Origin: a virus
Virus record (IMG/VR): IMGVR_UViG_3300035698_003388
Coordinates: 1-36,917 of that record
DNA length: 36,917 bases
Reading direction: 5' to 3' (one strand)
Positions 3,119 to 36,917 of this stretch are shown piece after piece. The notes under the pieces are model-generated. The model searched no databases. It had not been told where the DNA came from and saw only the letters and a program-made list of their open reading frames with translations. Both the position numbers and the translations under genes were made by a program. The stretch's first letter is position 1. Every line of letters begins with the position of its first letter.

Positions 3119-3306
3119 TGCAACCTTTGTATGCTAATAGAGAAGACCGTAAACGTATATCCGATAAGTCTATGTTATTATATGGACGCCGACAACACTG
3201 GGTTAAAGTTGCAAATCGAAACTGCCTAGATATAACTCAAATTGAACTATTATTAGACTCTATGATGAAACAATTAACGGAGAAGACTGATGTTAAAAAT
3301 AAATGA
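3118..3306 (+). CDS. unknown 62-residue basic protein
   Basis: The start ATG overlaps the preceding stop as TAATG, with GGAGG 7 nt upstream. The protein is rich in Arg and Lys in its first half (NREDRKRISDK, GRRQHW) and helical at the C-terminus (about 40-55). It overlaps the next gene by 17 bases. Nucleic-acid binding is possible from its charge, but no domain is recognised. Confidence 0.6.
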   Translation: MQPLYANREDRKRISDKSMLLYGRRQHWVKVANRNCLDITQIELLLDSMMKQLTEKTDVKNK

Positions 3307-3772
3307 TAGAGTCATGACCAAACGTGGTCGTTTTGGTAAGGTTGTTGGTGTTCACAAAATAAGTGGTAAGTTTGCGATACAATTAGACTGCGGTCTATTA
3401 TCTGAAGGGACACCTTCAGACTATACAATAATACCGCACAAACCAACAATTTGTCCAGTAATCGAAAGTGGCGGCACTAAAAAAGATCAAGGTAAATTAA
3501 GACCAGAGTTGTTACCAATAGAAGCACTAGAGTCTGTTATAAAAGTATTTACCTTTGGTGCCAGTAAATATGACGACTTTAACTGGGAGAAAGGATTTAA
3601 ATTTACTCGACTAACTGGTGCGACATTTAGACACATATTCGACTGGATGAAAGGCATAGATAAAGATCCGGAGAGTGGTGAATCTCATTTGGCTCACGCG
3701 ATTTGTTGTTTAATGATGTTAATATCTTTTCAAATAAAGGGGACAGGAACCGATGACAGGCGTAAAGACTAA
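3290..3772 (+). CDS. dATP/dGTP diphosphohydrolase-like (DUF5664) with N-terminal SH3-like domain
   Basis: Residues 66-147 match the phage dATP/dGTP diphosphohydrolase N-terminal family: GKLRPELLP (69-77), FGASKY..NW (89-99), RHIFDW (114-119), ESGESHLAHA (128-137). Such all-alpha, MazG-related enzymes remove pyrophosphate from dNTPs and shift the nucleotide pool during phage replication. The Glu/Asp/His residues around 123-137 are the likely metal site. Residues 1-50 look like a small KOW/SH3-like barrel (NDRVMTKRGRFGKVVGVH), an unusual fusion. The start ATG has GGAG 7 nt upstream. There is no PurZ or DatZ-type partner in the window, so a Z-genome pathway is not indicated. Confidence 0.8.
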   Translation: MLKINDRVMTKRGRFGKVVGVHKISGKFAIQLDCGLLSEGTPSDYTIIPHKPTICPVIESGGTKKDQGKLRPELLPIEALESVIKVFTFGASKYDDFNWEKGFKFTRLTGATFRHIFDWMKGIDKDPESGESHLAHAICCLMMLISFQIKGTGTDDRRKD

Positions 3773-31929: not shown

Positions 31930-32012
31930 TTCTCTTAGATATAATAGGTGTTTAGATGCTTTAGGTGCGATAATTTACTCCATACAATGGGTTAAATAAA
32001 AAACTCTCCTAC

Positions 32013-32079
32013 TTATTATGGTCGAGAATGTAAAAGTTTTAGTCAAATGTATAAAAGTTTTACAAATATGACCATAATA
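32013..32079. promoter_or_regulatory. divergent late control region: 28-bp imperfect inverted repeat with TATTATGGTC ends
   Basis: Between the terminase and amidase genes an arm TATTATGGTC (32014-32023) is mirrored by GACCATAATA (32070-32079). The likeness extends inwards: after 5 variable bases each arm has TGTAAAA(G/C)TTTTA, seen as TAAAAGTTTTA at 32031-32041 and 32052-32062, 21 bp apart. Each outer TATTAT could be a -10 box facing into the repeat, or the arms may bind a dimeric late regulator. The right arm ends 5 bases before the amidase start. Two related copies occur at 36633-36690. Confidence 0.6.
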
Positions 32080-32083
32080 GTAT

Positions 32084-32509
32084 ATGAGAAAGATTAAAAC
32101 CATTGTAATACATTGTTCAGCAAGTCCCGATTCATTGGACTTTGATGTTAAAGACATAGATCGCTGGCATAAAGAGCGTGGCTGGTCAGGCGTTGGATAT
32201 CATTATGTTATTAAACGTAATGGAACGGTACAAAGAGGCCGCCCAGATAGTAAAACGGGTGCCCATGTAAAAGGACATAATCGAGGAAGCCTTGGTATAT
32301 GTCTTATCGGAACTAATAAGTTTACAACTAAGCAATTGCAATCATTATATATTTTGAGTCATAGTTTAATGTATCAGTATGATATTGATGTTGAAAGTGT
32401 TCTTGGCCACTATGAATTATATTCAGGAAAGACCTGTCCCAATCTTAAAATGGAAATAGTTAGAGCTAATTTAGTATTTAAACAAGATTCAGAATTAGAT
32501 ATAGTATAA
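32084..32509 (+). CDS. endolysin: N-acetylmuramoyl-L-alanine amidase, T7-lysozyme-like
   Basis: This 141-residue amidase_2/PGRP protein has zinc ligands His10, His109 and Cys118, with Tyr39/His40 and Lys116 at the catalytic places, in the same order as T7 lysozyme (His17, Tyr46, His122, Lys128, Cys130). It cuts the amide bond between muramic acid and L-alanine. There is no signal peptide, so a holin should release it. The ATG has no Shine-Dalgarno sequence, since ATAATAGTAT precedes it, in contrast to most genes here. Translation may be weak or leaderless. T7-type amidases can also bind RNA polymerase, but this phage encodes none. Confidence 0.93.
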   Translation: MRKIKTIVIHCSASPDSLDFDVKDIDRWHKERGWSGVGYHYVIKRNGTVQRGRPDSKTGAHVKGHNRGSLGICLIGTNKFTTKQLQSLYILSHSLMYQYDIDVESVLGHYELYSGKTCPNLKMEIVRANLVFKQDSELDIV

Positions 32510-34185: not shown

Positions 34186-34368
34186 TTATAACAAGTCAAG
34201 CTTTATTTTACTATTTTTTATTCTACCCCTAATTATACCCAGTAATCTAACATAATTTATTTTTAAAGCACGAGATGCAACTTGAGGTGAGTTATAAATA
34301 ATTCCAGTATTACGATCTATTATTTTATATATTGGGCCATCATGTGTCCCCTTCCATTCCTTAGACAT
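34186..34368 (-). CDS. NUMOD1-like DNA-binding protein
   Basis: This 60-residue protein has the pattern Y-K-I-I-D-R-N-T-G-I-I-Y-N-S-P-Q-V-A-S-R-A-L (14-35) of the NUMOD1 helix-turn-helix found in homing endonucleases, followed by a second helix. No nuclease domain is attached. It could be a remnant of a homing enzyme or a small regulator. AAAGGAATTAAAA precedes the ATG, and it overlaps the cold-shock-like gene by 8 bases. Confidence 0.55.
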   Translation of the reverse strand: MSKEWKGTHDGPIYKIIDRNTGIIYNSPQVASRALKINYVRLLGIIRGRIKNSKIKLDLL

Positions 34369-34576
34369 TTTTAATTCCTTTCCACAATTTTGGGGCTATT
34401 AATTCGACCTCTTTATAACTCGTAATCGGATTCATTTCGATTATTTCATATATAGCAATCTGTCCCGCTTCATATCCTTTCTGCACGAACCTATATGATT
34501 TAGTCCTGTATGTAGAGTCCACTATAAAACCGCGACCATCTATTTTGTTGTAACTTATTATCTTGCCGTATCTCAT
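34361..34576 (-). CDS. cold-shock-domain-like protein
   Basis: This 71-residue protein follows the cold-shock domain plan: GKIISYN (4-10), an RNP1-like DGRGFIVD (13-20), an RNP2-like SYRFVQKG (27-34), and GQIAIYEIIE (38-47) before a final AP. It would bind single-stranded DNA or RNA. The aromatic residues are partly replaced by Tyr and Ile, so binding may differ. It starts as ATGA with the upstream gene. Confidence 0.55.
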   Translation of the reverse strand: MRYGKIISYNKIDGRGFIVDSTYRTKSYRFVQKGYEAGQIAIYEIIEMNPITSYKEVELIAPKLWKGIKNV

Positions 34577-34740
34577 AATTTACCTAGCCTTTTATATCCC
34601 AATAATCTAGGATGGATACCAAATACCATTATAGTATACATGTCTTCTATTTCGAATCTACCGTCTTTTAGATCTCTTACAACAATCAGTTTATTGTATA
34701 TTGCATTATAATATAATTTCTTTGTTCTATAAATATTCAT
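34573..34740 (-). CDS. unknown 55-residue basic protein
   Basis: The first gene of the leftward accessory operon starts at ATG 34740 after AAGGCGGTAAT. The protein is basic (NIYRTKKLYYN..., RLLGYKRLGKL) with a short acidic middle. It overlaps the cold-shock-like gene as ATGA, and a strong promoter lies just upstream. No family is recognised. Confidence 0.6.
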   Translation of the reverse strand: MNIYRTKKLYYNAIYNKLIVVRDLKDGRFEIEDMYTIMVFGIHPRLLGYKRLGKL

Positions 34741-34759
34741 ATTACCGCCTTGTTAACTA

Positions 34760-34788
34760 ATAATAACATCGACCAATAAACGTCACAA
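34760..34788 (-). promoter_or_regulatory. leftward sigma-70-type promoter
   Basis: On the minus strand TTGTGA (34788-34783) and TATTAT (34765-34760) are separated by exactly 17 bp. It would drive the 34740-33729 operon and is divergent from the ncRNA promoter at 34822. Confidence 0.6.
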
Positions 34789-34821
34789 GTAAATAATAAG
34801 GAGTGGTCCAAATTAATACAC

Positions 34822-34850
34822 TTGACATATGTTGCAACATAGTGTAAGGT
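34822..34850 (+). promoter_or_regulatory. promoter with 14-bp palindrome filling its spacer
   Basis: A perfect TTGACA (34822-34827) is followed by 17 bp and TAAGGT (34845-34850), a weak -10. The spacer holds the perfect palindrome TATGTTGCAACATA (34828-34841). A dimer bound there would block polymerase, or a MerR-type factor could twist the site to activate it. It reads into the structured RNA. Confidence 0.6.
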
Positions 34851-34856
34851 GTAGGT

Positions 34857-35078
34857 AGTCGGTAGACCGGGAGCTTAGACGGTCGCGAAAGATAATAGAG
34901 TGTGTTGAATGTATTGATTGGTCCCGAAAGGTTATAGTACCCCAATAGTAAACACGATTGCTGGAGTTGCGCCCAGCTCGACTTAGAATGGCAGGTCATT
35001 AGTTTGGCCACACCCATTTGACTCATCCCGTTATAACCGGGGCTTGGTCTGACAGTCCGGAAAGACGGACAATTTTTT
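34857..35078 (+). ncRNA. structured RNA of about 220 nt with its own promoter and terminator
   Basis: The whole stretch is non-coding but highly structured. A closing helix has GTC (34858-34860), AGACC (34864-34868) and GAGC (34871-34874) pairing with the continuous GCTTGGTCTGAC (35042-35053). Inner hairpins are ATTGG/CCAAT (34917-34921, 34942-34946), CGA-GCTGG/CCAGC-TCG (34955-34964, 34973-34980), TGGC/GCCA (34989-34992, 35007-35010) and CCCG/CGGG (35027-35041). A terminator hairpin follows. It is distinct from tRNA, tmRNA and 6S as far as I can see. The function is unknown; a late regulator, an antisense or decoy RNA, or a packaging-type RNA are all possible. Confidence 0.65.
35055..35078 (+). 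terminator. intrinsic terminator of the structured RNA
   Basis: GTCCG (35055-35059) pairs with CGGAC (35066-35070) around GAAAGA, followed by AATTTTTT. The next gene's ribosome site (AAAGGAGAA) starts only about 8 bases later, so read-through would express the downstream genes. Confidence 0.8.
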
Positions 35079-35098
35079 ATATATTAAAGGAGAATATA

Positions 35099-35293
35099 GT
35101 GGAAACAACAGAATTAAAGCGCACTTATTTATTATTTATGGGACTCAACCCCGAAGATTCACTAGAGTTAGAACTCACTTCAGAGGAAGCTACAACATTC
35201 TTTGAAGAAACTATATTTGAATATAAGTATAAGTCTGGTCACCGAGTCTATTTTAACACTGGGGCCTTTACCCATATTGCAGAAAAGCGATGA
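35099..35293 (+). CDS. unknown 64-residue acidic protein
   Basis: The frame is open further upstream, but that part is the structured RNA. GTG 35099 follows AAAGGAGAATATA and is the best start. The protein is acidic in its first half (NPEDSLELELTSEEATTFFE) with a basic C-terminal half (YKYKSGHRVYFNTG). There is no membrane segment and no known family. Expression probably depends on read-through of the RNA's terminator. Confidence 0.6.
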   Translation: METTELKRTYLLFMGLNPEDSLELELTSEEATTFFEETIFEYKYKSGHRVYFNTGAFTHIAEKR

Positions 35294-35354
35294 TTGATTA
35301 TATTTTTTGCGATAATTTTTATTTTATTTGTAATTTTAGATAAGGAGGATTAAT

Positions 35355-35663
35355 ATGACACATAAGGAAATCTTTGAGGCTTTATTGGCCGGAAAGAAAT
35401 TAAGATCAGATTTTTGGAATGTTGAAAATTATGTATATCTTAAAGATGATATGCTATATGATGAAGAGGGCGTATGTCTAATTATAGATATATTAGACAA
35501 CACAATGGAGATTTTTGAAGAACAACACTATCAAGTGTTGTATACTAATTATGTCGGCCGCTATAAAGTAACTAGCTCAACATATAAATCAAAGGAAGAA
35601 TTTGATGCAGTGTGTTCTGACTATGATGAAGTATATGACTTCGTTAAGCTCCTAATACCTTAG
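35355..35663 (+). CDS. small phage protein with GKKLRSDFW motif
   Basis: This 102-residue acidic protein follows a very strong ribosome site (AAGGAGG). The N-terminal EIFEALLAGKKLRSDFWN (5-22) then YVYLKDDMLYDEEG resembles a small domain common in phage accessory genes (EAL-x-G-K-x-(V/I)-R-x3-W). Tad2/DUF2829-type proteins share part of this pattern, but the match is weak and the function cannot be claimed. It ends 40 bases before an intrinsic terminator. Confidence 0.6.
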   Translation: MTHKEIFEALLAGKKLRSDFWNVENYVYLKDDMLYDEEGVCLIIDILDNTMEIFEEQHYQVLYTNYVGRYKVTSSTYKSKEEFDAVCSDYDEVYDFVKLLIP

Positions 35664-35703
35664 AATAACATTCACTAATGATTACAACTACTTATAACAA
35701 ACA

Positions 35704-35737
35704 GGCTCCTATTGTTAACCACTTAGGGGCCATTTTT
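35704..35737 (+). terminator. rightward intrinsic terminator
   Basis: GGCTCCT (35704-35710) pairs with AGGGGCC (35725-35731), with one G-T pair and a 14-nt loop holding GTTAAC, followed by ATTTTT. It ends the 34857-35663 transcription unit. The segment CTTAGGGGCCA recurs about 110 bases downstream (near 35836) without a T run. Confidence 0.65.
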
Positions 35738-36632
35738 CGTCACCATTCCCACATAAACGCTAAAAGACCTCTCACATGCCCTACAAGCCGCCTATACAAT
35801 ACTAAGCCGACCATGTGAAGCCAGTCGCTCTGCTCCTTAGGGGCCAAACTCGGCCTTATTAGGGCACCATCACACTCGCCGTCACATCGAATATACCGTT
35901 ACTTTTTATATTTTCCATTACGCATCAATAGGCACCACTTTAACACACCCCCCACACCACACGGCCGTACCGTAATCCCACTATAAAACAGTATAATAAT
36001 AACTTATGTCATAATAATACAATATAGTTGTAGACTATCAGTAATATGGTATAGATCTTGCATATATAAGGTCTACTTATAGGTATATTGGCATGTATAT
36101 TGCATTCAAGGGCGTATAATAGCCTAAATAACACTTAATTCAATTCGTGTAGATTTATGAAAAGTCTCATAATGAGACAGTGGACTACCCTTTAGATATA
36201 TACTATACATCTGCTACCCTCTCTATATATGAAAAGTTGCAACACACTATATATGATAAGCCGGCTTCTAATTAGGCGATTATTCAGAGTCAGTCAGATA
36301 TACGTAATATCAATGACTTAGGGATGTAAGTACTATTTAATTGATCATTAATGGTAGTTAATATGTTGTAAGCTATTGTTAATACTAACATGAACAAGAC
36401 GCAACAAAGTCTACCTATAGCCGGCTTATAAACAGCCCCTCTTTAGATGTGCTTCAGTCCCACCCTTTTGAGGTGATTGTCGTGAGTACCTTTATTTAAA
36501 GTTTCCAGTACCTGCTATCTTCATACTAACACATTTGGCCTTCCACCCAGGGGTTCTGATCTTCCCTTCCTGAGTACGCATTTCTTTGTAATTGATCCTG
36601 CGCCCTATCGACTCTCGGCATACGCCCGCTAT
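35738..36632. other. roughly 0.9 kb region with no convincing gene
   Basis: No reading frame with a start and ribosome site is convincing. Bases 35738-35990 are rich in C and poor in G on the plus strand. Bases 36000-36300 are very AT-rich with TATATA runs. Bases 36420-36632 are GC-richer again. Palindromes include GTCTCAT-A-ATGAGAC (36164-36178) and AAGCCGGCTT (36258-36267), and AGCCGGCT returns at 36419-36426. CTATATATGA occurs twice around 36222-36256, flanking GTTGCAAC. It may hold the replication origin, the packaging site or further structured RNA. Confidence 0.5.
36164..36178. repeat. inverted repeat GTCTCAT-A-ATGAGAC
   Basis: Two 7-bp perfect arms flank a single A, giving a 15-bp operator-like palindrome in the AT-rich gene-free region. 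No second copy was noticed in the window. Confidence 0.55.
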
Positions 36633-36690
36633 TTTTAATGGTCCCTATGTGTGTTCTTGTTACTCTCTACCTTATTATGGTCCGGTCTGT
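36633..36690 (+). repeat. two tandem copies of the TATTATGGTC-type motif
   Basis: TTTTAATGGTC (36633-36643) with TGTGTG four bases on, and TATTATGGTC (36673-36682) with TGTGTG five bases on, match the arms of the late control region at 32013-32079. The second copy also shares ACTCTC and a C before TTATTATGGTC with the copy at 32013. They lie upstream of the early promoter. Confidence 0.6.
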
Positions 36691-36752
36691 GTGAAATAAA
36701 TGGCCCACATATCCCATTATGATACATAAATCCAACGAAATCAATTAATTAG

Positions 36753-36781
36753 TTGCAAAAAATAAAAACAAGGCGTATTAT
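36753..36781 (+). promoter_or_regulatory. early rightward sigma-70-type promoter
   Basis: TTGCAA (36753-36758), 17 bp, and TATTAT (36776-36781) form a good promoter, with AAAAGGAG and the ATG at 36801 just downstream. If the genome is circular, this promoter would drive the whole early operon that begins at the left end of the window. Confidence 0.7.
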
Positions 36782-36800
36782 TAATAAAAGGAGATAAATA

Positions 36801-36917
36801 ATGATAATTCACAAAATAGAGAGATTTGAAACAGAAATTAAGGCCGCCAATAAAAAAATAGGCGAGCTGCTCCATATACAGGCACTATTGCATTATAAGG
36901 ATCAAGTGGTCACTGAG
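36801..36917 (+). CDS. small protein cut by the window end
   Basis: Thirty-nine codons are present, starting at ATG 36801 after AAAAGGAGATAAATA. The protein is a charged helix (HKIERFETEIKAANKKIGEL). The last base completes a codon, and the first nine bases of the window read AAC AAT TAA in the same frame, which would end the protein at 41 residues if the ends join. It would then be the first early gene. No family is recognised. Confidence 0.6.
   Translation, partial: MIIHKIERFETEIKAANKKIGELLHIQALLHYKDQVVTE

What the first reader, a model, noticed from the sequence alone, without database searches (positions are those of the whole stretch)
34857..35078. A roughly 220-nt structured RNA with its own promoter and terminator
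Seen: TTGACA-17-TAAGGT upstream, a long-range closing helix (GTC/AGACC/GAGC with GCTTGGTCTGAC), at least four internal hairpins, and a terminator hairpin with a T run. The stretch is GC-richer than the genome and has no sensible gene. Known: phages carry several structured RNAs, but I recognise none of them here. Inference: an unreported phage RNA, possibly regulatory or acting against the host.
Basis: partly seen in the sequence, partly recalled or inferred. Interest (0 to 1): 0.78.

Follow-up and report, generated by a model that had tools for sequence, protein, structure and literature searches.

The report
Noncoding leader transcript in uncultured phage
A phage genome contains a short gene-free stretch with a start and a stop signal for making RNA, most likely the untranslated front end of a two-gene unit; its predicted fold is no better than chance and no relative could be found to test it.

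Summary
The described parts are there: TTGACA-17-TAAGGT at 34822-34850, a long-range helix closing 34858-34871 on 35043-35053, four well-predicted internal hairpins, and a terminator hairpin with a T run at 35055-35078. The stretch is noncoding in all six frames and GC-richer than the genome (48% against 36%). But the fold is not special: z = -0.18 against dinucleotide shuffles, and 33 of 300 shuffles close their ends as well. The -10 box matches only 3 of 6 positions. No Rfam family matches, and no homologue was found in IMG/VR, GTDB genomes, phages or plasmids. Covariation could not be tested, so 'structured RNA' is unproven. The terminator is followed 20 nt later by the start of a two-gene unit with no evident promoter of its own. 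The best reading is therefore a noncoding 5' leader, partly terminated at 35078 and read through into two small genes (64 and 102 aa), a layout like the Gifsy-1 isrK locus. An alternative antiterminator pairing exists but is also no better than chance. A host-directed, independent RNA is possible but has no specific support. Ordinary to moderately interesting.

The parts
34817..34853 (+). Imperfect dyad (TACAC..TATGTTG/CAACATA..GTGTA) that spans the promoter; possible operator
   Evidence: Self-match on the opposite strand, E 2e-4 to 4e-4; in an ungapped test it does not stand out, so weak
34822..34850 (+). Sigma-70-like promoter TTGACA-17-TAAGGT
   Evidence: Perfect -35 box; -10 box matches only 3 of 6 (TAnnnT kept); only such match in the window outside listed same-strand ORFs
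34857..35078 (+). Noncoding leader / short transcript, about 222 nt
   Evidence: Six-frame negative codon score, GC 0.48, no Rfam match, fold z -0.18
34858..35053 (+). Long-range closing helix 34858-60/35051-53 and 34864-71/35043-50
   Evidence: P 0.5-0.72; equalled by 11% of shuffles
34867..35060 (+). Alternative (antiterminator-like) pairing 34867-71/35056-60 plus 34875-80/35047-52, exclusive with closing helix and terminator
   Evidence: Dominant fold of the transcript ending at 35063; equalled by 15-50% of shuffles
35055..35078 (+). Intrinsic terminator T1
   Evidence: 5-bp stem, -7.4 kcal/mol, T run; only one of this strictness in the genome, shuffles 0-2
35099..35293 (+). Gene A, 64 aa, GTG start, Shine-Dalgarno AAAGGAG, no known family
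   Evidence: Positive codon score; no Pfam or PHROG match; no relatives
35355..35663 (+). Gene B, 102 aa, weak likeness to the Tad2-like domain
   Evidence: PF11195 E 0.04, below cut-off; phrog_6670 E 2.4e-4
35704..35737 (+). Probable terminator T2 closing the two-gene unit (8-bp stem, 12-nt loop, ATTTTT)
   Evidence: Hairpin -13.0 kcal/mol

Best explanation
This is the noncoding 5' leader of a small phage operon (genes A and B). Transcription starts near 34857 from the promoter at 34822-34850. Most transcripts end at the intrinsic terminator at 35055-35078, giving a short RNA of about 220 nt; a fraction reads through into genes A and B and ends at T2. Shown here: the order and noncoding nature of the parts, the predicted terminator, the Shine-Dalgarno about 10 nt behind the T run, and no consensus promoter between the leader and gene A. 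Inferred: that the promoter is used, that read-through occurs, and that the leader controls it (by refolding, by a bound phage or host protein, or merely as a terminator of fixed efficiency). Whether the terminated RNA also acts in trans is open.
For: Order promoter - noncoding body - T1 - Shine-Dalgarno - gene A - gene B - T2 on one strand. The scan lists no plus-strand promoter-like site between 34798 and 35421, and the 20 nt between T run and gene A leave no room for one. All six frames of the body score noncoding. A pairing of the terminator's 5' arm with 34867-34871, exclusive with the terminator, is the preferred fold of the transcript just before the terminator completes. Precedents: Gifsy-1 isrK, where an sRNA ends at its terminator or reads through into a small ORF and downstream genes (PMC4825925); 150-200-nt untranslated leaders of PLE satellite operons that are not conserved in sequence (PMC7567579).
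Against: The antiterminator pairing is no better than in shuffled leaders (15-50%), so regulation by refolding is not shown. Promoter and terminator are each only moderate matches. Gene B could have a weak promoter of its own in 35294-35354. There are no transcript data and no relatives to show conservation.
Confidence: 0.5

Rival explanations
1. A free-standing trans-acting small RNA (on phage or host targets) with its own promoter and terminator; genes A and B are expressed independently.
For: Complete unit: promoter, GC-rich noncoding body, terminator. Phages K and ICP1 make abundant intergenic ncRNAs during infection.
Against: No evident separate promoter for gene A; no notable complementarity to the rest of the genome (off-target matches inside the RNA are at chance level); fold not stable beyond chance; no conservation found.
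Confidence: 0.25
2. No functional RNA structure: an ordinary intergenic or regulatory DNA segment (promoter, operator, plain 5' UTR) whose predicted fold is what any 48% GC sequence of this length shows.
For: z = -0.18; closing helix, helix number and antiterminator all within the shuffled range. Two other gene-free GC-rich stretches lie close by (35700-35999 and 36400-36699), so GC enrichment is not unique to this stretch.
Against: An ordered promoter and terminator around a noncoding body in a gene-dense phage genome is hard to explain as filler.
Confidence: 0.2
3. A protein-coding gene on the minus strand (34757-35026, 89 aa) continuing the row of small minus-strand genes.
For: Open reading frame with ATG, in line with 34573-34740.
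Against: Codon score -0.225 per codon against +0.05 to +0.23 in neighbours; no acidic residues; no family; no relatives; no convincing Shine-Dalgarno before the ATG.
Confidence: 0.03

Closest known systems
Gifsy-1 prophage isrK locus (Salmonella)
   Same: Promoter, short RNA ending at an intrinsic terminator, then a small ORF and further genes reached by read-through (PMC4825925)
   Different: No sequence or structure relationship was tested; isrK is shown by experiment, lies in a prophage, and its cis/trans pairing with orf45 is demonstrated, which is not the case here
Untranslated operon leaders of PLE phage satellites and intergenic ncRNAs of phage ICP1
   Same: 150-300-nt noncoding transcripts, some in front of operons and not conserved in sequence (PMC7567579)
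   Different: Those were seen by RNA-seq; here there are only sequence signals
HK022 put / lambda nut antitermination leaders (own knowledge)
   Same: Structured leader directly behind a promoter of a phage operon with a terminator downstream
   Different: put is short (about 70 nt, two hairpins) and occurs twice in its genome; here a single copy with no second place in the window
P4/P1/N15 C4-type antisense leader RNAs
   Same: RNA whose complementarity to leader sequences regulates phage genes (named in PMC7567579)
   Different: These depend on complementarity to other leader segments; none beyond chance here
Large phage-associated ornate RNAs (GOLLD, ROOL)
   Same: Noncoding RNA in a phage genome with no known function
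   Different: Those are several hundred nt; no Rfam family matches here

Membership tests
Any Rfam 15 RNA family | Score at or above a family's gathering threshold | tested here: not met
   0 matches at gathering; only noise at E 0.57 and 5.5 under the lax search
tRNA / tmRNA | Recognised by ARAGORN | tested here: not met
   No tRNA or tmRNA in the window
Transcription attenuator / riboswitch-type leader | Terminator directly upstream of a gene on the same strand | tested here: met
   T1 35055-35078, Shine-Dalgarno about 35088-35094, GTG 35099
Transcription attenuator / riboswitch-type leader | Antiterminator exclusive with terminator, beyond chance | tested here: inconclusive
   The pairing exists but is equalled by 15-50% of shuffles
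Transcription attenuator / riboswitch-type leader | Structure conserved by compensatory change | not testable with these tools
   No homologue found
IsrK-like dual sRNA/mRNA leader | Short terminated RNA plus read-through mRNA with trans pairing | not testable with these tools
   Needs transcript mapping; the layout alone agrees
Type III toxin-antitoxin (ToxIN-like) | Tandem repeats in the RNA and a ToxN-like endoribonuclease behind the terminator | tested here: not met
   No repeats seen by reading the sequence; genes A and B have 64 and 102 aa and no such domain
Retron ncRNA | Reverse transcriptase gene downstream | tested here: not met
   Downstream genes of 64 and 102 aa, no RT domain

The most novel reading that the evidence does not exclude
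A new class of phage-encoded structured RNA, about 200 nt with a closed multi-branch fold, made early as a stable transcript and acting on host RNA polymerase or host messages, restricted to an uncultured phage lineage.
Probability: 0.07. Interest if true: 0.65.

Novelty: new member of a known kind. Interest (0 to 1): 0.27.

Why it matters
If transcribed as predicted, it would be one more example of a terminated leader controlling a small phage operon, here one whose second gene faintly resembles an anti-defence protein. If it proved conserved in relatives yet to be sequenced, it could define a new phage RNA family. On present evidence it is a candidate without comparative support.

Tried and rejected
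1) Homology by DNA: blastn against phages (only a 28-nt match around the Shine-Dalgarno in Staphylococcus phages) and plasmids (a 26-nt identity in Sinorhizobium pLM21S1 without T run or flanking similarity, and no model match: taken as chance). 2) Exact-pattern scan of IMG/VR: 15 stretches, all with unrelated flanks. GTDB scan: one hit, with flanks unlike the RNA. 3) Terminase relatives by sequence and profile: the RNA is absent by nhmmer in the loci held at that point and by covariance model over loci and whole records. The model is built from one sequence and so is weak for distant relatives, and the only close relative (L003, 81% terminase identity) ends before the site. 4) Polymerase, gene A, gene B and the antisense ORF as anchors: no relatives. 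5) Analogous GC-rich gene-free stretches with terminators in relatives: none clear (that gene caller is crude and misses even this one). 6) Attenuator by refolding: possible, not beyond chance. 8) Literature searches on phage leader RNAs gave few papers (one search was a malformed query).

Full report
What the window is. The window is a whole IMG/VR virus record of 36,917 nt. It encodes a tape measure protein, a terminase large subunit, a portal protein, a DNA polymerase and an ERF recombinase, and looks like a siphophage of an uncultured lineage. Among the listed hits the terminase has no cultured match above about 32% identity, and the polymerase only 26-28% matches. The open reading frame that starts at 36801 closes in frame a few bases into the other end of the record, so the record is probably a circular or circularly permuted complete genome.

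Observation. The stretch has 47.7% GC against 36.2% for the window and is noncoding: all six frames score negative in codon usage, including an 89-aa antisense ORF (-0.225 per codon, neighbours +0.05 to +0.23). The weaknesses are in the statistics. The fold has z = -0.18, or -0.13 with the following 20 nt. The body alone has z = +0.53 and its closing helix is matched by 33 of 300 shuffles. The number of confident helices is ordinary. The -10 box is poor, and a strict terminator count in the genome equals the shuffled count. Each element alone is therefore near chance; the ordered combination around a noncoding body is not (rough joint odds, inference).

Surroundings. T1 is followed by AAAGGAG and a GTG start at 35099 (gene A, 64 aa), gene B at 35355-35663 (102 aa, a sub-threshold Tad2-like match) and a second hairpin with T run, T2. 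The scan lists no plus-strand promoter-like site between the RNA start and gene A. The simplest reading is one transcription unit in which the 222 nt are a leader with an internal terminator, so genes A and B depend on read-through. On the minus strand, small genes run away from this site (34186-34740), with a promoter-like site at 34788-34760, so the region is a divergent promoter region.

Mechanism. When the transcript has been made to 35063, the terminator's 5' arm prefers to pair with 34867-34871, and 35047-35052 with 34875-34880. In the complete RNA the terminator state is 6.5 kcal/mol better. Shuffled leaders do as well in 15-50% of cases, so this is a possibility, not evidence. No leader peptide with a Shine-Dalgarno was seen on reading the sequence. 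No antisense complementarity to other parts of the genome stands out.

Relatives. Terminase searches gave other contigs at about 53-82% identity. The sole close one (L003) ends before the site; the others share the amidase gene next to the terminase but not the genes flanking the RNA. Sequence and single-sequence covariance searches of loci and whole records found only the window. Anchors near the site found nothing. The absence is therefore uninformative about conservation in true siblings.

Comparison with what is known. Nothing in Rfam fits. The layout is like isrK of Gifsy-1, where the terminated RNA and its read-through mRNA have different roles (PMC4825925), and like the non-conserved 150-200-nt leaders of PLE satellites (PMC7567579). 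These are comparisons of layout, not of descent. Membership in put, C4-type, type III toxin-antitoxin or retron RNAs is not supported.

Verdict. A probable noncoding leader transcript with a partial terminator, ordinary in kind. The structured-RNA and anti-host readings remain untested, not excluded.

Noticed in passing
window 36088-36181; L090 1814-1735 (minus strand): A sigma-54-like site TTGGCATG-N4-TTGC followed 71-85 nt later by a hairpin element TCTCA(T/A)AATGAGACAGT is shared between the window and the distantly related L090, in the gene-free region in front of plus-strand (probably early) genes. Possibly a conserved promoter with a downstream transcript element or binding site.
   Followed up: partly
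window 35664-36800: A 1.1-kb gene-free region with two further GC-rich stretches (35700-35999 at 47-50%, 36400-36699 at 44-45%) in an otherwise dense genome; candidate origin, packaging site or further noncoding RNAs, perhaps on the minus strand.
   Followed up: no
window 35355-35663: A 102-aa protein with a sub-threshold Tad2-like match at its N-terminus, possibly an anti-defence protein.
   Followed up: no
window 32001-32120: Strongest local fold in the sampled windows, z -5.3 (plus) and -3.6 (minus), with a near-palindrome centred at 32046, near the start of the amidase gene.
   Followed up: no
window 36801-36917 and 1-12: An open reading frame runs off the right end and closes in frame at the left end, suggesting a circularly permuted complete genome.
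   Followed up: partly
window 3290-3772: dATP/dGTP pyrophosphohydrolase (PF18909, E 1.8e-30), a family also found in phages with 2-aminoadenine DNA (own knowledge); no PurZ-sized gene of that kind was noticed among the early ORFs.
   Followed up: no
window 1-36917: TGTTGCAACA-like sequences (up to 2 mismatches) occur 71 times against 20 expected from shuffles; the promoter of the finding contains an exact copy.
   Followed up: no
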